This document shows, piece by piece, positions 256 through 11,840 of a stretch of 64,000 nucleotides of DNA; the first letter of the stretch is position 1, and every line of letters begins with the position of its first letter. Made by a program: the position numbers and the translations under genes. This DNA comes from Actinomadura rupiterrae. Lineage in GTDB: Bacteria > Actinomycetota > Actinomycetes > Streptosporangiales > Streptosporangiaceae. The stretch is taken from contig NZ_JAMZEA010000002.1 in the NCBI RefSeq assembly GCF_024172125.1, positions 372,001 to 436,000 of the forward strand. The letters run 5' to 3'. The notes under the pieces are model-generated. The model had not been told where the DNA came from, made no database searches, and saw only the letters and a program-made list of their open reading frames with translations.

Positions 256-1455
256 ATGAGACGTTCGGTCCTGCTCCTGTCCACCGGGCACGCCTGCGTG
301 GACGTCTACCAGGGCGCGGTGCCCGCGCTCGTGCCGTTCCTGATCTCCGAGCGGCACTACAGCTACGCGGCCGCGTCGGCGGTGGTGCTCGCGGCGACGC
401 TGCTGTCGTCGGTCGTCCAGCCGGTGTTCGGGCTGCTGACCGACCGGTGGCGGATGCCGTGGCTGATCCCGGTCTCGATGCTGCTCGGCGGGACCGGCAT
501 CGCGGCGGCCGGGACGTCCGGGGACCACGCCGTGGTGTGGGCGCTCGTCGCGCTGTCCGGGCTGGGCGTCGCGGCGTACCATCCGGCGTCCGCGCGGCTC
601 GCGCGGGTCGTCACGCGCGGTGACCACGGCGGGATGAGCTGGTTCTCGCTCGGCGGCAACGTCGGGTTCGCCGCCGCGCCCCTGCTGGTCACGCCGCTGC
701 TGGCGGCGGGCGGACTGGGCGCGACGCCGTGGCTGGCGGTGCCCGCGGTGGCGGGCGCGCTGATGACCGTCCTGGTCGCGCGCGCTCCGGCTTCCGCGAG
801 CGCCGCGTCCGGGACGTCCGCCGGACGCCGGGACGACTGGCGCATGTTCGCGCGGCTGTCGCTGATGGTGACCTGCCGCTCGGTGGCGTTCTTCGGCGTG
901 AGCACGCTGCTCGCGGTCGTCGCGAAGCAGCGGATGCACGGCGGCTCGTCGGTCGGCGCGGCGGCGCTGTTCCTGCTGTTCGCGGGCGGCGCCGCCGGGA
1001 CCATCCTGGGCGGACGGCTCGCCGGGCGGTTCGGCCGCGTCCGCTGCACCCGCGCCGCGTACGCGCTGGCCGTGCCGTCCGTCGCCGGCGTCGCGTTCCT
1101 GCCCGGCCCGCTGGTGTTCCTCGGCATCGCGGCGACGGCGGCCACGCTGTACGTCCCGTTCTCGCTCCAGGTCACGCTCGGCCAGGACTACCTGCCCGGA
1201 CGCGTCGGAACCGCCGGCGGCGTCACGCTCGGCCTCGCGGTCAGCGTCGGCGGCGTCGCCAGCCCGGCGCTCGGCGCGCTCGCCGACCGGACCTCGCCGT
1301 CCGCCGCGCTCGTCCCGGTGATCGCCGTGCCCGCCCTGGCCTGGCTCCTCGCGCGGACGCTGCGCGAGCCCGAACCGATCGAGACCGCCTCCGGCCAACC
1401 TGACCCGGCCCGTGACCGAGAGTGCGGCGAGGCGTCCGCGCAGGCTCCGGCCTGA
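256..1455 (+). CDS. MFS transporter, fosmidomycin-resistance (Fsr) type
   Basis: A 399-aa integral membrane protein predicted to export small drugs or metabolites by proton antiport. The N-terminus runs straight into TM1 (STGHACVDVYQGAVPALVPF), and the region around residues 30-60 has the GLLTDRW loop typical of MFS. The GVAAYHPASARLARVV and SLGGNVGFA segments are characteristic of the Fsr subfamily. The length matches the family (about 400 aa). The ATG at 256 is the only start that keeps TM1 without a long soluble extension. The last 30 residues are polar and cytoplasmic. It lies 530 bp before the oxygenase operon on the same strand, so a role in self-resistance is possible but is inferred from position only. 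Confidence 0.85.
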   Translation: MRRSVLLLSTGHACVDVYQGAVPALVPFLISERHYSYAAASAVVLAATLLSSVVQPVFGLLTDRWRMPWLIPVSMLLGGTGIAAAGTSGDHAVVWALVALSGLGVAAYHPASARLARVVTRGDHGGMSWFSLGGNVGFAAAPLLVTPLLAAGGLGATPWLAVPAVAGALMTVLVARAPASASAASGTSAGRRDDWRMFARLSLMVTCRSVAFFGVSTLLAVVAKQRMHGGSSVGAAALFLLFAGGAAGTILGGRLAGRFGRVRCTRAAYALAVPSVAGVAFLPGPLVFLGIAATAATLYVPFSLQVTLGQDYLPGRVGTAGGVTLGLAVSVGGVASPALGALADRTSPSAALVPVIAVPALAWLLARTLREPEPIETASGQPDPARDRECGEASAQAPA

Positions 1456-1986: not shown

Positions 1987-3378
1987 ATGACAATCCAGGA
2001 ACAAAGCCTGCCCGTTTTCGCATCGGACGGGGAGGTCCTGCGCGACCGGGTTGCGTCTTTCGCGGCGAACCAGTTGTTCGGCGGCCGGCCGGACCTGCTG
2101 CACGGGCCCAACCCCTACCGGCGCACGCTGGTGCCGGAGGCGCTGGCGGAGGTCGACTTCGACCGGCCGCTCGGGGCGCGCGAGTTCGCGTCCTCCCGGG
2201 CGCTGACGGTCCACCGGATCCTCGGCACCTACTACGAGTCGGAGACCGTGCTGCTCCCCGAGCAGGGCCTCGCCGGCCTGCGGCCCGACTTCGAGGCCTT
2301 CTACGGCGAGGAGCTGCGCCGGATCAGGGAGTCGTCCCTGTCCGACCTGGAGCGCTTCGCCTTCGGCTTCCTCGACGGGGAGGTGGAGGTCAGCGGCGAC
2401 TGCACGCCGGAGGTGCTCGACACCTACCTGCGCCACCTGGTGGACGAGGCCGCGCGCGGCGACTCGCCCGCGCTGGACGCGATCGCGACCGCCGCCGACC
2501 GGCCCGCCGCCGCCGACACCTACCTCGTCCAGCTCGCCCTGGACGGCCTGACCGAGGCCTCGGCGATGTCGCGCAACCTCGGCGGCGCGTACGGGCCGGA
2601 GCAGTCGGCGCTGTTCAAGGTGTTCATCGACGAGTTCGGCTACGGCGTGCACGAGTCGAAGCACACCACGATCTTCACCAAGATGCTGGGCAGCCGGGGC
2701 ATGGCGTCGCACGTGCACGCCTACTGGAACTTCTACCTGCCCGGCCCGATCGCGATCAACAACCACTACTACCTGCTGTCCCGGGACCACGCGAAGTTCT
2801 TCCGGTACGCGGGCGCGGTCGCCTACGCCGAGGCCGTCTTCGCACCGGCCTTCGTCAAGATGATCAAGGTGTTCCGGGACGTCTTCGGCGACGACGTCGA
2901 CCTGCACTACTGCGACGAGCACGCGCACATCGACGAGCACCACGGCCGGATCACCCGGGAGGAGATCCTGCTCGCGCTCGCCGAGCGGCACGGGAACCAC
3001 GTCGTCCCCGAGCTGATGCGCGGCATCGCGGAGGCGCGGATGCTCGGCGGCTGGTTCGAGGACGACACCGCCGCGCAGATCACCTGGTCCGACACCATCC
3101 CCCGGCACCGGGAGCTGGCCGCGGACGCCACGCTCGACGGCCCGCCCGAGCGGGCCGAGCGGACCCGCGGAGCGGCGTTCCACACCCGCAACCACGACCA
3201 CGCCGTGGTCCTGGAGATCGAGGACGGCGAGGCCGAGCTCGTGACCAGCGCCACCGGCACTCCCACGCCCCTCGCCAAGGGCGACGCGGTGCTCGTCCCG
3301 GCCGGACGCGTGTACGGGGTCCGCGCGCTGTCGGACGCCTCGTCCCACCTCCTGCACCCCGTCCGGACGAGCGCATGA
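1987..3378 (+). CDS. SznF-like diiron (haem-oxygenase-fold) N-oxygenase with C-terminal cupin, copy 1
   Basis: A 463-aa protein with the architecture of SznF/StzF: an N-terminal arm, a haem-oxygenase-like diiron domain and a C-terminal cupin. The diiron ligand set recalled for SznF (E189, E215, H225, E281, H311, D315, H318) is found here at E190, E216, H226, E282, H312, D316 and H319, a constant offset of one. The last three form the motif HAHIDEHH. The cupin keeps H403 and H405 (NHDHAVV), but the third expected histidine is Y443 (VPAGRVYGV). Predicted role: O2-dependent N-hydroxylation of an arginine-type guanidine; the cupin rearrangement to an N-nitrosourea is doubtful. The stop overlaps the Rieske start (ATGA). 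The start is uncertain: GTG 1912 is possible. Confidence 0.85.
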   Translation: MTIQEQSLPVFASDGEVLRDRVASFAANQLFGGRPDLLHGPNPYRRTLVPEALAEVDFDRPLGAREFASSRALTVHRILGTYYESETVLLPEQGLAGLRPDFEAFYGEELRRIRESSLSDLERFAFGFLDGEVEVSGDCTPEVLDTYLRHLVDEAARGDSPALDAIATAADRPAAADTYLVQLALDGLTEASAMSRNLGGAYGPEQSALFKVFIDEFGYGVHESKHTTIFTKMLGSRGMASHVHAYWNFYLPGPIAINNHYYLLSRDHAKFFRYAGAVAYAEAVFAPAFVKMIKVFRDVFGDDVDLHYCDEHAHIDEHHGRITREEILLALAERHGNHVVPELMRGIAEARMLGGWFEDDTAAQITWSDTIPRHRELAADATLDGPPERAERTRGAAFHTRNHDHAVVLEIEDGEAELVTSATGTPTPLAKGDAVLVPAGRVYGVRALSDASSHLLHPVRTSA

Positions 3379-3830
3379 GCCGCATCGTGGTGATGGACCT
3401 GCGCGAGCACAACACCGTCCTCGCAGGTCACGACCGCTACTTCGTGCTCGTCGGCCCGGACGGCGACTCGCACCTCGTCCGCGACTGGTGCCCGCACCGC
3501 GGCGGGCCGCTCAGCCTGTCCCGGCTGACGCCGGACGGGCGCCGGCTGACCTGCCCGTGGCACGGCACCAAGGTCGGCGTCGCCGCCGTCCGCCGCACCG
3601 GCCTGCCCATGGTGCGCAGCGGCGACGAGGCGATCGTGCTGCTGCCGGACACCCCGGACGACGTGCCCGTGACGCTCGTCCACAAGCGGATCCTGGCCAA
3701 CCTCCCGCCCGAGGACCCCGACCGTCCCGGATCGGACGGCCCGGACGGTTCGGCCGGTCCGGCCGGTCCCGCCGGGACGGTCGAAGACTGCGCGGAACTC
3801 CCTGCCCTGCCCTGCGAGGAGCAACGATGA
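3375..3830 (+). CDS. Rieske [2Fe-2S] protein
   Basis: A 151-aa soluble protein with a canonical Rieske cluster motif: CPHRGG at residues 39-44 and CPWHG about 20 residues later, supplying two Cys and two His ligands. There is no oxygenase catalytic domain, so it is ferredoxin-sized and probably an electron donor. The last 40 residues are rich in Pro, Gly and Asp (GPDGSAGPAGPAG) and look disordered. Its ATG overlaps the stop of the first diiron oxygenase and its stop overlaps the methyltransferase start, so the three are translated together. The simplest reading is electron delivery to the diiron sites of the two oxygenases in this operon. That pairing is inferred from context. Confidence 0.9.
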   Translation: MSRIVVMDLREHNTVLAGHDRYFVLVGPDGDSHLVRDWCPHRGGPLSLSRLTPDGRRLTCPWHGTKVGVAAVRRTGLPMVRSGDEAIVLLPDTPDDVPVTLVHKRILANLPPEDPDRPGSDGPDGSAGPAGPAGTVEDCAELPALPCEEQR

Positions 3831-4915
3831 GCGAAGATCTGCACGAGGTCGTCCTCCCGGCGGACGCGAGCGGCGCCGTGGACCGGGTCGTGGCCGAGTT
3901 CATCCGGCGCGGCCATGCGCTGCACGAGTCCGGCATGTACGACAAGGCCATCGAGGAGTTCGAGCTCGCGCTGGCGCTGGACGGCGACAACCGCGAGGCC
4001 ATGCTCGGGCAGAACCGGGCGATCCGGCGGCACGTCCCGCGCTGGCACTGGGAGATGCTGCACGACCGGGAGCGCGCCGACCTGTACGACCGGGCCATCA
4101 GCCAGGTCGTCCGGCCGGACCGGCGGGTGCTGGACATCGGCACCGGCACCGGCCTGCTGTCGATGATGGCCGCCCGCGCCGGGGCCCGCGAGGTGACCGC
4201 CTGCGAGGGGCAGCCCGCCGTCGCGGCCGTCGCGAAGCAGATCATCCGGGCCGCGGGGCACGAGCAGGTGATCACCGTGGTGTCGAAGCGGTCGACCGCG
4301 ATGCGGGTGCCGGCCGACATGCCCGCCCGCGCGGACATCCTCATCACCGAGACGATCGACTGCGCGCTGCTGGGCGAGGGCATCCTCGGCACGATCGCGC
4401 ACGCCCGCGAGCACCTGCTGACCGACGACGCGCTGATCCTCCCGTCCGCCGGGCGGGTGTTCGCGCAGCTGGTGGAGAGCGACACGCTGTTCCAGAAGAA
4501 CCACGTCGGCAAGCTCTACGGGTTCGACCTGTCGGAGTTCAACAGCCTCGCCTCGCTGGAGTACTTCGACTCGCGGCTGCGCAACCACCAGTGGCGCCCG
4601 CTGTCGGAGCCGATGGAGATCTTCGCGTTCGACTTCTACAAGGACGGCCCGGACGAGCGCCGCGCCGAGTTCGTCGTCTCGCCGACGGCCGAGGGGCGCG
4701 CGCACGCGATCGTGTTCTGGTTCGAGCTCGACCTCGTCCCCGGGATCGGGCTGACGAACTCGCCGAGCAACCCGCAGTCGCACTGGAAGCAGGCCGTCCA
4801 GTGCCTGCCGGACCCGCTCCAGGTGCGGCCCGCCGAGCCCCTTCTCCTGGACGCCCGGCACGACGGCATCTCCATCCACTTCACCGCCGTCAGCATGGGG
4901 GAGACGACGCCATGA
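3827..4915 (+). CDS. SznE-like (PRMT-fold) L-arginine N-methyltransferase with N-terminal TPR
   Basis: A 362-aa S-adenosylmethionine methyltransferase of the protein arginine methyltransferase fold. Residues about 22-62 form a TPR-like helical hairpin. Motif I is VLDIGTGTGLLS (101-112). The PRMT double-E loop is present as E175 and E184 in TETIDCALLGEG, and the THW-type loop reads SHWKQ at 318-322. SznE of the streptozotocin pathway is a PRMT homologue that methylates free L-arginine to N-omega-methylarginine, the substrate of SznF. Lying between two SznF-like genes, this enzyme most likely does the same. Methylation of a protein or peptide arginine is the alternative. ATGA overlaps join it to both neighbours. 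Confidence 0.85.
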   Translation: MSEDLHEVVLPADASGAVDRVVAEFIRRGHALHESGMYDKAIEEFELALALDGDNREAMLGQNRAIRRHVPRWHWEMLHDRERADLYDRAISQVVRPDRRVLDIGTGTGLLSMMAARAGAREVTACEGQPAVAAVAKQIIRAAGHEQVITVVSKRSTAMRVPADMPARADILITETIDCALLGEGILGTIAHAREHLLTDDALILPSAGRVFAQLVESDTLFQKNHVGKLYGFDLSEFNSLASLEYFDSRLRNHQWRPLSEPMEIFAFDFYKDGPDERRAEFVVSPTAEGRAHAIVFWFELDLVPGIGLTNSPSNPQSHWKQAVQCLPDPLQVRPAEPLLLDARHDGISIHFTAVSMGETTP

Positions 4916-6300
4916 CCGACCCCACGACCCAGAGCGATCTCGACGAGTACGGCGCGCTGCCGATCTTCCGTCCCGGTCCCGAGCTGTACGTCGAGGCCAA
5001 CCCCTACCGGCGTCCCCTCGGAGAGACCGGGAAGGCCGAGTTCGCGGAGCCCGCGACCGAGGCGGAGTTCCTGAGCCACCGGCACCTCATCGCGAGCCGC
5101 ATCCTCTGCAACGTCTACGAGAGCGAGATGGTCCTGCTCCCGGAGGACGGGGTGGGGCCGGTCAAGGGCGACTTCGACCAGTTCTACGGGCCCGAGGTGC
5201 GGCGGCTGCACGACGCGATGCGCCCGTCCCTGGAGCGCTACTCCTTCGGCCTGCTGGAACGGCTCGAAGCGCCCCCGGTCCGGACGGTCGAGGAGCTGGA
5301 GGCGTACTTCCTCGGCGAGGTCGAGGGCGCCGGAGCCCCGCCGGACGCGTCGGGCAACAACCCGGCCGTGGACGCAGCCGCCCGGCTGACCGGATCGATG
5401 CGCGCCATCGTCGAGTGCCCCGAGCCCGAGGACGCGGCCCGGCTGAACCTGATCCAGCTCGCCCTGGACGGCCTGACCGAGGCGTCCGCGATGGCCGGCA
5501 ACCTCGCCGGCTTCTACGGCCCCGAGCAGTCGGAGCTGTTCAAGGTCTTCACCGACGAGTTCGGCTACGGCGTCTACCGCGCCAAGCACAGCACGCTGTT
5601 CCGGGGGATGGTCTCCAGCATCGGGCTGCGCACCGACGTGCACGCCTACTGGAACTTCTACCTGACCAGCTCGCTCGCGGGCGCGAACTACTTCAACTAC
5701 CTCACCAAGAACCACCGGGGCGTGTTCCGGTACATGGGCGCGGTGAGCTACCTGGAGTGGCTGTTCGCGCAGGGCTTCGCCGACATGGGCACGATGCTGC
5801 GGACGGTCTTCGGCGACCGGGCCGACACGAGGTACACCGACGAGCACGCGCACATCGACATCCACCACGGCCGGATGACGTTCGAGAACCTGCTGCTCGG
5901 GCTGGCCCGGCGGCACGGCGAGGCGGTCGTCCCCGAGCTGGTCCGCGGCATCGTGGAGACCAAGGAGCTGCTCCGGCTCGGCGACGCCGACTTCCAGGCG
6001 CAGATCGCCTGGGCCTCGTCGCTCGACGAGCACACCCGGCTCGGCACCAAGCTCGCGTCCTCGGCCGCCGATGACGGCACCGCGACCGTGCTCAAGCCCG
6101 GCGACCCGTTCAGCACGCGGGTGCACGACGGCGACCGGCTGGTCGAGGTGACCGGCGGCGAGGCCGAGGTGCACGCCTGGGCCACCGACACCCCGCACCG
6201 CCTCGGCGCGGGCGAGACGCTCCTGGTCCCGGCGGGCCGGCTGTACGGCCTGCGGGCCGCCGCGCCGCGCGCCGAGGTCGCCGTCCGCCCCGTCCGATGA
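4912..6300 (+). CDS. SznF-like diiron (haem-oxygenase-fold) N-oxygenase with degenerate cupin, copy 2
   Basis: A 462-aa paralogue of the protein at 1987-3378. All seven diiron ligands are conserved at the same numbering: E190, E216, H226, E282, H312, D316 and H319 (DEHAHIDIHHG). The cupin is more eroded than in copy 1: HxH has become H405-x-G407, and the third ligand is again Tyr (VPAGRLYGL, Y445). The cupin therefore probably no longer binds iron. Two oxygenases behind one methyltransferase suggest two successive or alternative N-oxidations, or a heterodimer, since SznF is dimeric through its N-terminal region. Its ATG overlaps the methyltransferase stop. A 57-bp gap separates it from the first ATP-grasp gene. 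Confidence 0.85.
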   Translation: MTDPTTQSDLDEYGALPIFRPGPELYVEANPYRRPLGETGKAEFAEPATEAEFLSHRHLIASRILCNVYESEMVLLPEDGVGPVKGDFDQFYGPEVRRLHDAMRPSLERYSFGLLERLEAPPVRTVEELEAYFLGEVEGAGAPPDASGNNPAVDAAARLTGSMRAIVECPEPEDAARLNLIQLALDGLTEASAMAGNLAGFYGPEQSELFKVFTDEFGYGVYRAKHSTLFRGMVSSIGLRTDVHAYWNFYLTSSLAGANYFNYLTKNHRGVFRYMGAVSYLEWLFAQGFADMGTMLRTVFGDRADTRYTDEHAHIDIHHGRMTFENLLLGLARRHGEAVVPELVRGIVETKELLRLGDADFQAQIAWASSLDEHTRLGTKLASSAADDGTATVLKPGDPFSTRVHDGDRLVEVTGGEAEVHAWATDTPHRLGAGETLLVPAGRLYGLRAAAPRAEVAVRPVR

Positions 6301-6357
6301 CGGCGCCGCACGCCGTCCCGAGGCGGCACCGCACGCCCCCCACCCGATGAAGGACCG

Positions 6358-7590
6358 ATGGAAAAGCCACTCCTGATCGTCGTCGCGAGCAGCTACGCGG
6401 CGTACCGCTCCTACATCTTCCGGACGGTGTCGTCCCGGTACCGGTTGTGGCTGCTCAACCCGGCCCCGCCCACGTGGGAACTGCCCTACATCGAGGGCTG
6501 CACCGTCGTGAACTGCCTCGACCAGGACGCGCTGACCGAGGCCGCCGCGGCGGTCGCCCGCGAGCACAAGGTGGCGGGCTTCTACTGCTACGACGAGGTG
6601 TACATCGAGACCGCGGCGTGGGCCGGCGCCGCGCTCGGCCTCCAGACGCTCGACCCGGCGGCGGTCGCCCGCTGCCGGGACAAGACCGCGACCCGGCAGG
6701 CGCTGGAGAAGGCCGGGATCCCGCAGCCGGCGTCCCGTCCGGTCGCGACGCTGGACGAGGCGCGCGAGTTCGCCGAGCGGACCGGCTACCCGGTCATCCT
6801 CAAGCCGCGCAACCTCGGCGGCAGCCTCGGCCTGCGCAAGGTCGAGCGTCCCGAGGACCTCGCGGCCGCCTTCGAGGTCACCAAGGGCGCGGTCGTCCCG
6901 GGCATCCAGCGGTTCGAGGACCAGGTGATCATCGAGGAGTTCCTGGACGGCCCCGAGGTCTCCATCGACTCGGTGGTCTTCGAGGGCGAGTGCACCCCGA
7001 TGATCGTCGGACGCAAGGTGCTCGGCGAGTCCGAGTCGATGGCGTTCGAGGAGATCGGCCACGACGTGGACGGCAACGACCCGCTACTGGACGACCCGGG
7101 CGCGGTCGACCTGGTCCGCCGCACGCACGAGGCGCTCGGCTTCGACAACGGCTTCACGCACGCCGAGTACAAGGTCACCCCGAAGGGCCTGTACGCGATC
7201 GAGGTCAACGCCCGGCTCGGCGGCGGCATGATCCCCTACCTCGGCATGCTGACCTCCGGCACGGACGCGGCGCTCGCCGCCGCCGACGTCGCCGCCGGAC
7301 GCCGTCCGACCGTCGCGTTCCCCGACCCGCGCCGCGCCGCCTCGGTCCGCTTCGCCTACCCGGCGTACGACATGCAGGTCGAGACCGCGCGGGCGCGCGA
7401 GGAGCTGCTCGTCCCGCCGATCCACGAGATGGGAATGAGCGCGGTGCCGGGCATGACGGTGAAGCTGCCGCCGCACGGCCTCGCCCGCTCCGGCTACGTC
7501 ATCGCGATCGGGGCGACCCTGGAGGAGTCCCGCGCGGCGGTGGCCGACCCCGCCCGGTTCTTCGAGATCACCGGGAAGCCCCTGTCGTGA
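6358..7590 (+). CDS. ATP-grasp carboxylate-amine ligase 1
   Basis: A 410-aa ligase of the ATP-grasp superfamily, close to L-amino-acid ligase and carbamoyl-phosphate-synthase-type enzymes. It has an N-terminal Rossmann-like pre-ATP-grasp domain (residues 1-100). The central ATP-grasp domain includes GYPVILKPRNLGGSLGL and the metal-binding segment AIEVNARLGGG. The C-terminal lid contains GYVIAIGATLEESRAAV. Such enzymes activate a carboxylate as acyl phosphate and couple it to an amine. ATG 6358 follows a GAAGGA ribosome site. The stop overlaps the MFS start (GTGA). It probably builds an amide on the oxidised arginine product; the substrate is unknown. Confidence 0.85.
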   Translation: MEKPLLIVVASSYAAYRSYIFRTVSSRYRLWLLNPAPPTWELPYIEGCTVVNCLDQDALTEAAAAVAREHKVAGFYCYDEVYIETAAWAGAALGLQTLDPAAVARCRDKTATRQALEKAGIPQPASRPVATLDEAREFAERTGYPVILKPRNLGGSLGLRKVERPEDLAAAFEVTKGAVVPGIQRFEDQVIIEEFLDGPEVSIDSVVFEGECTPMIVGRKVLGESESMAFEEIGHDVDGNDPLLDDPGAVDLVRRTHEALGFDNGFTHAEYKVTPKGLYAIEVNARLGGGMIPYLGMLTSGTDAALAAADVAAGRRPTVAFPDPRRAASVRFAYPAYDMQVETARAREELLVPPIHEMGMSAVPGMTVKLPPHGLARSGYVIAIGATLEESRAAVADPARFFEITGKPLS

Positions 7591-8894
7591 GCGCGAAGAC
7601 AGGGGGCGGCGCGCAGGCGGAGGGCGGCGCGAAGGCCGATGTGACCGTCCTGCGGACGCTCCGGGAGATGCCGAGCACGGTCCGCGTGCTCATGATCGGC
7701 AACCTGGTCAGCAACCTGGCGGCCTTCCTCAACGCGTTCCTGGTGCTGTACCTGCTGCACGAGGGCTTCACCGCGTGGGAGAGCGGGGTGGTGCTGACCG
7801 CGCTGATGGTCGGCCGCATCCTCGGCAGCGCCGCCGGCGGGACGGCCGCCGACCGGTTCGGCTACCGCTGGACGATCATCGGCTCGACCGCCGCCACGGC
7901 GGCGCTGACCGCCGCGATCGTGTACGTCCCGAACGTCTGGGTCGGCGTGCTGGTCGCGGGCGGCGCGGGCCTGACCGCGACCTCGTTCCGTCCGGCCGCG
8001 ATGGCCCGGGTCGTCGAGCTGACGCCGGACGAGCGCCAGGTCATGACGTTCTCGATCTGGCGCGCGACCTTCAACATCGGGTCCACGCTCGGCCCGCTCG
8101 GCGCGGCGCTGCTGCTGACCTGGTTCGGCTCCTACGTCCCGCTGTTCTTCGCGGACGCGGCGACCTCGCTGTGCTACGGCCTGGTCGCCCTGCTCGTCCT
8201 GCCCGCCGACGCCGCGCGCACCGGACGCAAGAAGGACGGCCAGCAGGCGGAAAAGGCCGCGAAGCAGCCCGCGCCCGGCTACCGGAAGGTCTTCGCGGAC
8301 GGCCGGTTCGTGCTGGTCGTCCTCGGCCTCTTCCTGACCTCGGTCGCCTACATCCAGATGAACTCGTCGCTGCCGCTGTTCGTCACCGACTCGGGCTTCG
8401 ACAGCCGGATCTACGCGGTGATGCTCGCGATCAACGGCGGCATGGTGATCGCGCTCGAACTCTGGCTGTCCAAGTGGACCCAGAAGGCGCCGATCGGCAT
8501 CCCGATGGCGGCGGGCATGGCGCTGCTCGGCCTCGGCTACCTGACCTACCTCGGCCCGTCCATGACCTGGGTCCTGATCGCCGGGACGATCGTCTGGACC
8601 TGCGGCGAGCTGGTCGCCGCCCCGTCGATGCTCGCCTACCCGGGCCTGGTGGCCCCCGCCGAGCTGCGCGGCCGCTACATCGGCCTCGCCACGCTCGCCA
8701 CCCAGATCGCCTACAGCGCTGGCCCGGTCGTCGGGGTCACCGCGTGGCACTGGTGGGGCACGAAGCTGTGGGTCCTCACCGGCGCCTGCGCCGGGGCCGC
8801 GGCGGTCTGCGTGGCCCTGGGCGCCGGGTTGCGGACCCGGCCCAAGCCGCGCGAGTTGCACGTCTCCAAAGAAAGAGAAAGTGAGCCAGCATGA
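7587..8894 (+). CDS. MFS transporter, probable product exporter
   Basis: A 435-aa major facilitator protein with 12 predicted membrane segments and a lysine-rich central cytoplasmic loop near residues 210-230 (RTGRKKDGQQAEKAAKQ). It has the MFS loop-2/3 motif GGTAADRFGYRW around residues 85-98. The GTG start overlaps the preceding ATP-grasp stop, and the stop overlaps the next ATP-grasp start. Being embedded between two ligase genes argues strongly that it exports the product of this operon and so may give self-protection. A less likely reading is substrate uptake. Confidence 0.88.
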   Translation: MSAKTGGGAQAEGGAKADVTVLRTLREMPSTVRVLMIGNLVSNLAAFLNAFLVLYLLHEGFTAWESGVVLTALMVGRILGSAAGGTAADRFGYRWTIIGSTAATAALTAAIVYVPNVWVGVLVAGGAGLTATSFRPAAMARVVELTPDERQVMTFSIWRATFNIGSTLGPLGAALLLTWFGSYVPLFFADAATSLCYGLVALLVLPADAARTGRKKDGQQAEKAAKQPAPGYRKVFADGRFVLVVLGLFLTSVAYIQMNSSLPLFVTDSGFDSRIYAVMLAINGGMVIALELWLSKWTQKAPIGIPMAAGMALLGLGYLTYLGPSMTWVLIAGTIVWTCGELVAAPSMLAYPGLVAPAELRGRYIGLATLATQIAYSAGPVVGVTAWHWWGTKLWVLTGACAGAAAVCVALGAGLRTRPKPRELHVSKERESEPA

Positions 8895-10156
8895 GCAAGC
8901 CAGTCGTCGCGGTCGTCCAGCCGTACAGCTCGGGGGCGATGCTCGCCCCGCTGCTGCGCGCGGCGGGGCTGAGCCCGGTGGCGGTCATGGACTGCGTCGG
9001 GCCGGCGCTGGAGCCGCTGCGGGCCGCGCACGTCCCGGAGAACTACGACGTGGTGGTCAACCACCACGGCGACACCGCGCAGACGATCGCCACCCTCGGG
9101 GCGCTGAACCCCACCGCCGTCTTCACCTCGGTGGACATGGCGCTGCACCTGACCCAGGAGCTCGCGGAGGCGCTCACCCCGGACGAGGCCAACGTCCCGG
9201 AGCTGATCGACGCCCGCCGGCACAAGTACCTGATGCACCAGGCGCTCGCCGCCGCCGGGCTGCCCATCGCCCGGCAGATCTGCACGACCGACCCGGCCGA
9301 GGTGGAGGACTGGATCGCGCGCGAGGGCCTCGCCGGGCGCGACCTGGTGATCAAGCCGTCGTCCAGCGCCGGGATCGTCAACGTCGGCCGCGCGCCCGGC
9401 GGCGAGGGCTGGCGCGAGCACTTCGACGCCATCCTCGGCCACTACGACAAGAACGGCGTCCTCGCCGAGGACGTGCTGGTCATGGAGCACCTGACCGGCA
9501 CCGAGTACGCGGTCGACACCGTCAGCCACCACGGCCGCCACTCCATCACCGACATCATCCGGTACGACCGGGCGCAGTACGGCGACGGCATCGCCGTCTA
9601 CAACGCCGTCGAGTGGATGCCGTACGCGCCGGACGACGCCGTCCTCGGGCCGCTGATGGAGTACGCGCTCGCCGCGCTGGACGCGGTCGGCCTGCGGCAG
9701 TGGGCCGCGCACACCGAGATCATGATGACCGAGGACGGCCCGCGGCTGCTGGAGGTCAACGCGCGGCTCGCCGGGATCGGCCACCCCACCCTGACCGAGA
9801 TCGGCACCGGGGAGAGCCAGCTCACCCGGACCGTGGACGTCTGCGCCGGCCGCGGCGACCAGATGCCGGACGGGTTCACGCTGAAGCGGAAGGTGCTGGC
9901 CGTGTTCGTCAAGGCTTACACCTCCGGTGTCGTCCGCAACGCCGAGATCCTGGACGAGGCGCGCTCGCTGCCGAGCTTCCACTCCACCTTCCGGCTGGTG
10001 TCCACGGGCGACCGGGTCGAGGCCAGCACCGACATCCACACGAGCATGACGATGGGCTACATCACGCTCGCCCACGAGAGCACCGAGCAGCTCTACGCGG
10101 ACCGGGACGTCATCCGCAAGCTGGAGCAGCAGCTCATCATCGACCCCGAAGGGTGA
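8891..10156 (+). CDS. ATP-grasp carboxylate-amine ligase 2
   Basis: A 421-aa ATP-grasp ligase, only distantly similar to ligase 1. Visible elements are an N-terminal Rossmann-like domain, the lysine-bearing strand LVIKPSSSAGIVNVG near residues 155-170, and the catalytic metal segment LLEVNARLAGIGHPT near 290-305. The family couples carboxylates to amines through acyl phosphates, as in dapdiamide, bacilysin and many dipeptide pathways. The ATG overlaps the stop of the exporter gene. With ligase 1 it suggests a peptide of at least two amide bonds made without an NRPS. Substrates cannot be read from sequence. Confidence 0.85.
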   Translation: MSKPVVAVVQPYSSGAMLAPLLRAAGLSPVAVMDCVGPALEPLRAAHVPENYDVVVNHHGDTAQTIATLGALNPTAVFTSVDMALHLTQELAEALTPDEANVPELIDARRHKYLMHQALAAAGLPIARQICTTDPAEVEDWIAREGLAGRDLVIKPSSSAGIVNVGRAPGGEGWREHFDAILGHYDKNGVLAEDVLVMEHLTGTEYAVDTVSHHGRHSITDIIRYDRAQYGDGIAVYNAVEWMPYAPDDAVLGPLMEYALAALDAVGLRQWAAHTEIMMTEDGPRLLEVNARLAGIGHPTLTEIGTGESQLTRTVDVCAGRGDQMPDGFTLKRKVLAVFVKAYTSGVVRNAEILDEARSLPSFHSTFRLVSTGDRVEASTDIHTSMTMGYITLAHESTEQLYADRDVIRKLEQQLIIDPEG

Positions 10157-10163
10157 ACCCGAA

Positions 10164-11534
10164 GTGACCCGTGAGTCCCTGACCGAGGCGTACCTCAAGG
10201 AGAGCGCCGGGCTGCCGCTGAGCGAGCTGATCGGCGACCTGCCGAAGTCGGAGTTCCTGAACTCGCTCTACCGCGAGCGCTACCTGTCCCGTCCGGTGTT
10301 CCTCGGGCGCGAGGAGCAGCAGCAGCTCGCCGCGGACCTGGAGAACTTCCGGTCCGCGCTGCTCAGCCTGCCGGACAAGCTGTACGGCGGCGACCTCGCG
10401 GCGTTCGCGCGGGCCGTCGGGATGTCCGAGGTGCAGGTCTCGGCCGTCCTGCGCAGCCGCGGGCCCGAGCCGACCCGCGTCGGACGGCTCGACATGTACG
10501 CCGACGCGACCGGCCTGAAGGTGCTGGAAGTGAACATGGGCGGCTCGCTCGGCGGGCTGGACAACCCCGACATGAGCCGTCCGCTGCTGGCGCACCCGGT
10601 CCTGTCCTCGTTCGCCGAGCGGCACGGCCTGACGTACGTGGACACGCTGCAGGAGCTGGTGGACAGCGTGTTCGCCGAGACCGGGTTCGAGCCGGGCTCG
10701 CGTCCGGTGGTCGCGATGTGCGACTGGCCCAAGAGCTTCGACAAGCTGCGCAACTACATGACGCACTACTGCGAGCGCTGGCAGGAGATGGGCCTCGACG
10801 CGCACCCCTGCCACATCGGGCACCTGGACGTCCGCGACGACGGCGTCTGGCTCGGCGAGCGCAAGGTGGACATCATCTACCGGATGTTCCTCATCGAGGA
10901 CCTCATGGAGTCCGACGAGGCGCCCGCGCTGATGAACCCCGTCCTGGACGCGGCGCACCGCGGCCAGGTGAAGATCTTCACCCCGATGGACGCCGAGGTC
11001 TTCGCCAGCAAGGGCGCCCTCGCGATGCTGTCGGACGAGCGGAACCGCGGGCTGTTCTCGGCCGCCGAGCTGGCCAGCCTGGACCGGATCCTGCCGTGGA
11101 CGCGGATGGTCCGCCAGGACAAGGTGACGCTGGAGACCGGCGAGAGCGTCGACCTGGTCGACTACGCGCTCGCCAACCAGGAGCACCTGGCGCTCAAGCC
11201 CACCCAGCTGCACGGCGGCACGGGCGTCGTGCTCGGCTGGCTCCCCGAGGTCTCGGCGGAGGAGTGGCGCGAGCAGATCACGGCCGCCGTGGACGGTCCC
11301 TACGTGCTGCAGCGGCGGGTCGTCCCGGTGCCGGAGATGTTCCACGACGAGAATGGCGACCTGCACCCGTGGATCGTCGCCTGGGGCATCTTCACGATGG
11401 TGAGCGGCTACGGCGGCGGATTCACCCGGGCCATCTCGGTGTCGTCCGGGTACGAGCTGATCAACCTGGCCAACGGCGCGAACATCGGCGGCGTGCTGCA
11501 CGTCGGCGCCGACGCCGCGCCCGCGGCCGGGTAG
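10164..11534 (+). CDS. Divergent ATP-grasp-like protein (circularly permuted / glutathionylspermidine-synthase-like)
   Basis: A 456-aa soluble protein starting at GTG 10164, seven bases after the previous stop. It has the acidic, metal-binding-like segment LKVLEVNMGGSLGG in its first third and a lysine-containing strand ALKPTQLHGGTGVVLGW near residues 345-360. This order is reversed from ordinary ATP-grasp enzymes and is typical of circularly permuted members. I infer a third amide- or ester-forming step, or an N-terminal capping reaction. The assignment rests on two motifs and context, so a different nucleotide-dependent function is possible. It is the last gene of the coupled operon; a TTAAC-containing stretch follows. 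Confidence 0.6.
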   Translation: MTRESLTEAYLKESAGLPLSELIGDLPKSEFLNSLYRERYLSRPVFLGREEQQQLAADLENFRSALLSLPDKLYGGDLAAFARAVGMSEVQVSAVLRSRGPEPTRVGRLDMYADATGLKVLEVNMGGSLGGLDNPDMSRPLLAHPVLSSFAERHGLTYVDTLQELVDSVFAETGFEPGSRPVVAMCDWPKSFDKLRNYMTHYCERWQEMGLDAHPCHIGHLDVRDDGVWLGERKVDIIYRMFLIEDLMESDEAPALMNPVLDAAHRGQVKIFTPMDAEVFASKGALAMLSDERNRGLFSAAELASLDRILPWTRMVRQDKVTLETGESVDLVDYALANQEHLALKPTQLHGGTGVVLGWLPEVSAEEWREQITAAVDGPYVLQRRVVPVPEMFHDENGDLHPWIVAWGIFTMVSGYGGGFTRAISVSSGYELINLANGANIGGVLHVGADAAPAAG

Positions 11535-11606
11535 GGGTGCTTAGCCAACGGTTAACAGCGGCATAAAGGGGTGCCGGGGGCCGCGAGTGGCTGCGAGGTT
11601 CGGAAC

Positions 11607-11840
11607 GTGGCCGTACGACGTGGCGAATTCCCCGGCGCCCCTTCGCCATCCGGGCGTCCGGGCGCCGTGGCGCGGGCGTTCCGGGCGCTGCCCGCGGCGC
11701 ACCGGGAGATTCTGACCGAGACCTGGTTCCGGCGGCGGACGGTCGACCAGGCCGCCGCCGTCCTGGGACTCCCTGTCGAGGACGTCAAGCTGCGCGTCTA
11801 CCAGGCGCTCCGCGCGCTCGCCGTCGCGCTCGACGGCTGA
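11607..11840 (+). CDS. Small sigma-70 region-4-like protein
   Basis: A short basic protein of about 77 aa whose C-terminal 55 residues form an ECF sigma region 4 helix-turn-helix (RALPAAHREILTETWF, then VDQAAAVLGLPVEDVKLRV). No region 2 is present, so it cannot bind the -10 element as a normal sigma factor does. It may act as a stand-alone DNA-binding regulator or be a remnant. GTG 11607 was chosen because GAGG lies eight bases upstream; GTG 11571 would add 12 residues. It follows the biosynthetic operon on the same strand, so local regulation is possible but unproved. Confidence 0.55.
   Translation: MAVRRGEFPGAPSPSGRPGAVARAFRALPAAHREILTETWFRRRTVDQAAAVLGLPVEDVKLRVYQALRALAVALDG

What the first reader, a model, noticed from the sequence alone, without database searches (positions are those of the whole stretch)
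1987..11534. New SznE/SznF-type operon with two N-oxygenases and a peptide-ligase tail
Seen: two proteins with the complete diiron ligand set of SznF at constant spacing, a PRMT-fold methyltransferase with intact double-E and HW loops, a Rieske protein, three ATP-grasp-type proteins and an exporter, mostly with overlapping start/stop codons. Known: SznE and SznF turn L-arginine into the N-nitrosourea of streptozotocin. Inferred: this operon makes an N-methyl, N-hydroxylated or otherwise N-oxidised arginine unit (possibly with an N-O or N-N bond) and couples it by ligases into a small peptide-like product. I know of no described pathway with this set of genes.
Basis: partly seen in the sequence, partly recalled or inferred. 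Interest (0 to 1): 0.95.

Follow-up and report, generated by a model that had tools for sequence, protein, structure and literature searches.

The report
Twin SznF oxygenases, cupin ligands lost
An Actinomadura-like bacterium carries an operon with two relatives of SznF, the enzyme that builds the nitroso group of the drug streptozotocin; both copies keep the iron ligands for adding oxygen to nitrogen but lack two of the three iron ligands used for making the nitrogen-nitrogen bond, so the operon is predicted to make an N-methylated, N-hydroxylated arginine-like unit that ligases likely join into a small peptide.

Summary
The genes are intact at 1987-11534: HDO1, Rieske, PRMT-type methyltransferase, HDO2, ATP-grasp, MFS, ATP-grasp, glutathionylspermidine-synthase-fold ligase (AG3, by predicted fold). 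Both oxygenases are full-length SznF homologues with 7 of 7 diiron ligands. Substitutions of those histidines in SznF are reported to stop at the dihydroxy intermediate, so an SznF-type N-N bond is not expected. 0 of 120 listed homologues keep the triad. In working SznF the cupin is the more conserved domain; here the oxygenase domain is (cupin more alike in 20 of 21 SznF pairs, 0 of 190 HDO1, 0 of 252 HDO2). PRMT, HDO and Rieske stand together in 31 of 35 loci, intact-SznF loci included, which suggests that the Rieske protein is the electron donor. In 23 of 25 two-HDO genomes an arginine:glycine-amidinotransferase-type gene sits beside HDO2; the window's genome and A. harenae lack it. Substrate and product are untested. 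A new variant of a known kind.

The parts
1987..3378 (+). HDO1: SznF-type protein, 463 aa; diiron ligands E190 E216 H226 E282 H312 D316 H319
3139..3375 (+). HDO1 C-terminal cupin domain (approximate limits); SznF triad H407/H409/H448 reads R401/H403/Y443, Y459 reads H454
3375..3830 (+). Rieske [2Fe-2S] protein, 151 aa, CPH-x18-CPWH; likely electron donor to the oxygenases
   Evidence: PF00355 E 6.5e-9; motif in 31 of 31 Rieske homologues found in the loci; role inferred
3827..4915 (+). TPR + PRMT-fold methyltransferase (SznE-like), 362 aa
   Evidence: double-E and HW residues here and in 33 of 33 locus homologues
4912..6300 (+). HDO2: second SznF-type protein, 462 aa; diiron ligands E190 E216 H226 E282 H312 D316 H319
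6064..6297 (+). HDO2 C-terminal cupin domain (approximate limits); SznF triad reads R403/H405/Y445, Y459 reads V456
6301..6357 (+). 57-base gap where 23 of 25 two-HDO genomes carry an AGAT-type amidinotransferase gene
6358..7590 (+). AG1: ATP-grasp amino-acid ligase (PRK02186-like), 410 aa
   Evidence: PF13535 55.0 bits over cut-off 27; NF002563 169 bits, under its cut-off of 625
7587..8894 (+). MFS transporter, likely exporter
   Evidence: PF07690 E 9.3e-45; direction inferred
8891..10156 (+). AG2: ATP-grasp ligase, PRK07206 family, distant kin of dapdiamide synthase DdaF
   Evidence: NF005543 370.6 bits over cut-off 302; DdaF model NF041595 110 bits, under cut-off 840
10164..11534 (+). AG3: protein of predicted glutathionylspermidine-synthase fold, 456 aa
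   Evidence: model and fold matches; source names of some homologues

Best explanation
The operon encodes two SznF-type diiron N-oxygenases whose cupin domains lack two of SznF's three N-N-forming iron ligands, together with a Rieske protein, a PRMT-type methyltransferase, two ATP-grasp proteins, a third protein predicted to have the glutathionylspermidine-synthase fold, and an MFS transporter; it is predicted to methylate and then N-hydroxylate the guanidine of arginine or a close analogue, to stop before any N-N bond, and likely to join that unit into a small peptide that would be exported. Shown by sequence: gene set, intact diiron ligands, broken cupin triad in both copies, PRMT catalytic loops, Rieske cluster motif, conserved neighbourhood. 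Inferred: the methyltransferase makes N-omega-methylarginine first, as SznE does. The Rieske protein would pass electrons to the diiron sites. The twin oxygenases, which differ beside ligand E282 (A281/A283 in HDO1, L281/W283 in HDO2), would divide the work, either one guanidine nitrogen each or two different guanidines. The cupins would serve as binding or structural domains; Arg at SznF position 407 is invariant in the HDO1 clade, which fits a grip on a carboxylate. AG1, AG2 and AG3 would form up to three amide bonds. In relatives an amidinotransferase would supply a second guanidine; this lineage has likely lost it and carries a different AG3.
For: SznF homology with 7/7 HDO ligands and fold. 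Cupin HHH in 0 of 120 listed homologues, of which one is the window's own HDO1 and 3 are gapped there; the 7 HDO ligands in 120 of 120. Literature: substitutions of SznF H407, H409 and H448 accumulate the dihydroxy intermediate with no product (PMC11705231, passages). Conservation flips: mean pairwise identity HDO/cupin is 0.75/0.84 in 7 intact SznF-type proteins and 0.77/0.98 in 5 homologues without the HDO ligands, but 0.88/0.64 in 20 HDO1, 0.89/0.72 in 23 HDO2 and 0.77/0.47 in 9 of a third cupin-lost clade. Trees: HDO1 (27 rows) and HDO2 (26 rows) are each one group at 100*, also with the cupin columns left out. Neighbourhood: PRMT in 33 and Rieske in 31 of 35 loci; misses L008, L024 and L099 reach contig ends and L097 is a broken remnant; 6 of 6 distant-homologue loci L100-L105 lack PRMT, Rieske and ATP-grasp hits. 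In L090 and L091 HDO, Rieske and PRMT stand in a row with an amino-acid permease and without an ATP-grasp hit, which fits a modified free amino acid as the core product. dN/dS of all eight genes against A. harenae is 0.23-0.42. Precedent: the argolaphos cluster has a PRK02186 ATP-grasp protein and its product holds N5-hydroxy-L-arginine (PMC8976061, passages).
Against: No product, substrate or electron transfer was measured. R/H/Y could bind another metal. HDO2 of relatives keeps H448 (21 of 22 locus copies), so complete loss of cupin function is clearer for HDO1 and for the window's pair than for HDO2 at large. The amidinotransferase in most relatives suggests that the guanidine need not be arginine. 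dN/dS rests on one species pair, and the HDO2 cupin stands at 0.58. The HDOs studied to date are reported not to need a protein effector or redox partner for O2 activation (PMC13108848, passages). A single loss of the triad is not shown: with the cupin columns left out, one clade of all cupin-lost rows was merely not rejected (p-AU 0.50).
Confidence: 0.68

Rival explanations
1. The pathway still makes an N-N bond: a metal-binding cupin with altered ligands, or another protein of the operon, rearranges the dihydroxyguanidine into a nitrosourea or diazeniumdiolate.
For: The cupin fold is kept with high confidence in the HDO1 model. Arg at SznF position 407 is kept in all 82 HDO1-clade sequences with a residue there. 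21 of 22 HDO2 locus copies keep H448.
Against: Two of three ligands and Tyr459 are replaced in both window copies, and neither has H448, so no composite triad can form between them. Substitutions of these histidines in SznF stop product formation. The cupin is less conserved than the HDO domain in every HDO1 and HDO2 pair compared. No stand-alone cupin is among the eight proteins.
Confidence: 0.12
2. The oxygenases act on a guanidine or amine other than arginine, for example a product of the amidinotransferase in relatives, and the methyltransferase methylates that instead.
For: An AGAT-type gene lies beside HDO2 in 23 of 25 two-HDO genomes and in none of the intact-SznF loci. HDO1 and HDO2 differ from SznF and from each other at fixed positions of the HDO domain, some of them beside a ligand.
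Against: The window's genome has no AGAT homologue at E 1e-20 yet keeps both oxygenases with dN/dS well below 1. The PRMT-HDO-Rieske trio occurs without AGAT in SznF-type loci.
Confidence: 0.2
3. The enzymes modify a ribosomal peptide or a protein (PRMT as a protein methyltransferase, ATP-grasps as peptide maturases).
For: PRMT7 and PRMT9, protein enzymes, are the nearest solved structures by sequence.
Against: The window's cassette leaves gaps of only 57 and 7 bases for a precursor gene; short ORFs upstream and downstream of it were not searched. AG1 and AG2 match amino-acid ligase models, some below cut-off. The same PRMT family stands beside SznF orthologues.
Confidence: 0.05

Closest known systems
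SznF/SznE of streptozotocin (Streptomyces achromogenes)
   Same: Whole-length homology and, for HDO1, the same fold; all diiron ligands; PRMT-type partner.
   Different: Two oxygenase copies instead of one; cupin iron triad broken in both; extra ligases; 40% identity for HDO1. SznE's own sequence was not compared.
szn-type loci L092-L096 and L098 (SznF 64-80% identical, HHH intact)
   Same: PRMT, HDO, Rieske and AG2 together in 6 of 6; AG1 and MFS too in L094 and L095.
   Different: Single HDO with an intact cupin triad; no AG3 and no amidinotransferase hit.
ChmM of chalkophomycin
   Same: SznF homologue with one of its two metal sites lost (PMC11177257, passages and section 5).
   Different: The mirror image: ChmM keeps the cupin histidines and lacks the HDO iron ligands, and works with an NRPS/PKS line.
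Argolaphos cluster (alp)
   Same: N5-hydroxy-L-arginine in a short peptide; ATP-grasp protein AlpC of the PRK02186 type (PMC8976061, passages).
   Different: A YqcI/YcgG-family protein (AlpD) in place of an HDO; no PRMT, Rieske protein or HDO in the part of the gene table seen.

Membership tests
Nitrosourea synthase (SznF) | Seven diiron ligands of the HDO domain | tested here: met
   7 of 7 in HDO1 and HDO2
Nitrosourea synthase (SznF) | Three cupin histidines H407, H409, H448 | tested here: not met
   R/H/Y in both
Nitrosourea synthase (SznF) | Tyr459 (proton transfer by computation, PMC11705231) | tested here: not met
   H454 in HDO1, V456 in HDO2
Nitrosourea synthase (SznF) | N-N bond formation on dihydroxy-methylarginine | not testable with these tools
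   needs enzyme assay
SznF-type HDO N-oxygenase (3H/4C) | Ligand set with the extra Glu (E215) | tested here: met
   E216 present in both
SznF-type HDO N-oxygenase (3H/4C) | Whole-length SznF fold | tested here: met
PRMT-fold arginine N-methyltransferase (SznE-like) | SAM motif, double-E loop, HW loop | tested here: met
PRMT-fold arginine N-methyltransferase (SznE-like) | Acts on free arginine, monomethyl product | not testable with these tools
   inferred from co-location with SznF orthologues
Rieske ferredoxin | CxH...CxxH cluster motif without an oxygenase catalytic domain | tested here: met
   151 aa, PF00355 the only family over cut-off
Rieske ferredoxin | Electron donor to the HDO | not testable with these tools
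   co-location only
ATP-grasp amide ligase | ATP-grasp domain in AG1 and AG2 | tested here: met
   PF13535 over cut-off
Glutathionylspermidine-synthase-type ATP-grasp (AG3) | Pfam or NCBIfam match over cut-off | tested here: not met
   none; likened by predicted fold only
Two-HDO cluster type with amidinotransferase | AGAT-type gene beside HDO2 | tested here: not met
   absent from the window and, at E 1e-20, from the whole assembly

The most novel reading that the evidence does not exclude
A class of NRPS-independent hydroxyguanidine metallophores: an SznF ancestor lost its nitrosating cupin, then doubled, and the two oxygenases, fed by a dedicated Rieske protein, each hydroxylate a different guanidine (methylarginine and, in relatives, an amidinotransferase product) that ATP-grasp ligases join into a small metal-binding peptide.
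Probability: 0.2. Interest if true: 0.82.

Novelty: new variant of a known kind. Interest (0 to 1): 0.64.

Why it matters
The SznF family is seen to lose either of its two metal sites: ChmM keeps the N-N-forming cupin, this clade keeps the N-oxygenase and doubles it. If the prediction holds, that separates N-hydroxylation from N-nitrosation in nature and gives enzymes to study each step alone. The Rieske gene that stands with PRMT and HDO in 31 of 35 loci, intact-SznF loci included, makes the question of what reduces these diiron enzymes in the cell directly testable. It also flags likely mis-annotation: some members of this clade are named nitrosourea synthase in public sources (P0023, P0059, P0090, P0110), which the broken triad does not support.

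Tried and rejected
Rejected: an N-N bond by the SznF cupin (triad and Tyr459 changed in both copies); a composite triad shared between HDO1 and HDO2 (neither window copy has H448); HrmI- or RohS-type enzymes as the nearest kin (far weaker matches than SznF); a further HDO elsewhere in the genome (PF14518 finds only these two); an amidinotransferase elsewhere in the genome (PF02274 finds two strong and one weak match, but the AGAT query finds only a 56-residue match at E 8.6e-4).

Led nowhere: sigma-70 promoter scan, 0 sites. Paper searches for the gene combination: searches found 0 papers; others (8 papers; 5; 2; 1) listed none on it by title and abstract start; others (396 papers, 10 listed; 639 papers, 8 listed) were too broad to tell; (SznE) listed 20 unrelated papers of 367; (SznF) found 37 papers, 33 listed. 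They cover only CC-licensed PubMed Central papers, so absence from print is not shown. AG3's wider family sits in other neighbourhoods, some with ATP-grasp proteins, and did not reveal its substrate. A link between the amidinotransferase and AG3 was considered and is not firm: four amidinotransferase-bearing loci (L005, L007, L009, L013) have no AG3 hit, and L018 has no amidinotransferase but an AG3 only 34% identical. The GC-frame gene picking missed some cassette genes, so gene presence was counted from tblastn instead.
Full report
What is there. Eight genes on the + strand span 1987-11534: HDO1 (1987-3378), Rieske (3375-3830), TPR-PRMT (3827-4915), HDO2 (4912-6300), AG1 (6358-7590), MFS (7587-8894), AG2 (8891-10156), AG3 (10164-11534). 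Five of seven junctions overlap by four bases. The window is part of a 10.2 Mb assembly. The nearest HDO1 homologues with an organism name come from Actinomadura gamaensis and Actinomadura harenae (87% identity).

The clade. The HDO1 search scored 7996 candidates, 233 passed and the best 120 are listed, one of them the window's own. None of the 120 has HHH, 3 are gapped in that part, and all 120 keep the diiron set. In fetched loci, 12 of 62 extracted HDO frames have HHH: L027, the SznF orthologues of L092-L096 and L098, and L100-L104, which lack most diiron ligands instead and are called ChmM-like here by that pattern only. In trees, HDO1 (27 rows) and HDO2 (26 rows) are each one group at 100*, with or without the cupin columns. 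In the first tree all 73 cupin-lost rows form one clade (98*), with L027 a long branch outside it; without cupin columns and L027 that single clade is neither shown nor rejected (p-AU 0.50), the Acidobacteria pair being a long branch. So loss before duplication is likely but not proven.

Which domain works. Mean pairwise identity, HDO against cupin: SznF type 0.75/0.84 (cupin more alike in 20 of 21 pairs), ChmM-like 0.77/0.98 (10 of 10), HDO1 0.88/0.64 (0 of 190), HDO2 0.89/0.72 (0 of 252), third cupin-lost clade 0.77/0.47 (0 of 36). The more conserved domain is in each case the one that still has its metal ligands; where both are kept (SznF type) it is the cupin. The cupin fold is kept in the HDO1 model, and Arg at SznF position 407 is found in all 82 HDO1-clade sequences with a residue there, so the domain may have a new role such as binding. 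In HDO2, 21 of 22 locus copies keep H448 (all but A. harenae); the window's copy does not.

The neighbourhood. Of 35 loci searched (L003-L027, L090-L099), 33 have the PRMT and 31 a Rieske protein with its motif. The misses L008, L024 and L099 reach contig ends, and L097 is a broken remnant. Gene order differs between groups (HDO-Rieske-PRMT or PRMT-HDO-Rieske) and the trio reaches Acidobacteria MAG contigs (L025, L026) and Pseudomonas salomonii (L027). L024 and L099 appear to be one organism, and L008 and L022 are one species, so the loci are not all independent. Six loci of distant homologues (L100-L105) have no PRMT, Rieske or ATP-grasp hit. In the intact-SznF loci L092-L096 and L098 the trio stands beside AG2 in 6 of 6. 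The operon is therefore a branch of the szn type. That the Rieske protein feeds electrons to the oxygenase is inferred from this linkage; a 2026 review says that the HDOs studied to date need no protein effector or redox partner of the kind known from other diiron oxygenases, and its mentions of Rieske proteins concern other enzymes (PMC13108848, passages).

The family search found HDO matches in 34 of 341 genomes, 25 of them of the two-HDO type (G235 counted although no HDO1 was found; its contig ends shortly after HDO2). In 23 of these 25 an amidinotransferase gene lies directly beside HDO2. Its best solved relative is human L-arginine:glycine amidinotransferase (E 1.6e-109). The two without it are the window's genome and G242, which is A. 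harenae by identical contig coordinates; the same genome reached through L003 as G694 also lacks it. The Dactylosporangium locus L018 lacks it as well. In the window lineage AG3 is also of another kind: 80-86% identical to four close kin, 57-69% to 28 further aligned homologues and 51% to one, but 30-32% to the AG3 of five amidinotransferase-bearing loci. Against a simple link of the two, L005, L007, L009 and L013 have the amidinotransferase without an AG3 hit, and L018 has neither the amidinotransferase nor the window's kind of AG3 (34%).

Most likely working. PRMT methylates the guanidine; HDO1 and HDO2, likely reduced through the Rieske protein, add hydroxyl groups to guanidine nitrogens; no N-N bond follows; AG1-AG3 build a short peptide; the MFS protein exports it. 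Only the gene set, ligands, motifs, conservation and neighbourhoods are shown. Substrate, order, number of hydroxylations, product and export are inferred. Fixed differences beside ligand E282 (A281/A283 in HDO1, L281/W283 in HDO2) point to different pockets. Against A. harenae dN/dS is 0.23-0.42 for the eight genes and 0.58 for the HDO2 cupin alone (one species pair).

Known or new. PMC11177257 (passages and section 5) mined 426 SznF homologues, noted diversity in ligand conservation, and described a class with a lost HDO site and intact cupin; section 5 does not describe the reverse class or a doubled oxygenase. The rest of the paper was seen in passages only and its supplement not at all, so the reverse class may be listed there. 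Hence a new variant of a known kind.

Noticed in passing
L090 6033-10187, L091 5745-9873: HDO (cupin triad lost), Rieske, PRMT and an amino-acid permease in a row with no ATP-grasp hit: perhaps a free modified amino acid as product.
   Followed up: partly
L117 2922-13904: Two AG3-like proteins, two ATP-grasps, MFS, Lys/Orn N-monooxygenase, a stand-alone Cupin_2 protein and a DAO-type oxidoreductase: looks like a separate small-peptide cluster with N-hydroxy (possibly N-N) chemistry.
   Followed up: partly
L025, L026: Acidobacteria MAG copies have Asp in place of the SznF E215 ligand and a changed cupin triad (RCQ, RCH), beside Rieske and PRMT.
   Followed up: no
L019 10001-11375: HDO1 of this locus is split into two frames near the cupin, so the HDO part may stand alone there.
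   Followed up: no
L097: A broken HDO1-like remnant without a PRMT or Rieske hit nearby.
   Followed up: no
window 11571-11840: An 89-aa protein with only sigma-70 region 4 directly after the operon; no match in the loci.
   Followed up: partly
window 256-1455: A second MFS transporter upstream of HDO1, on the same strand; apart from the window's own copy, no match in the loci.
   Followed up: partly
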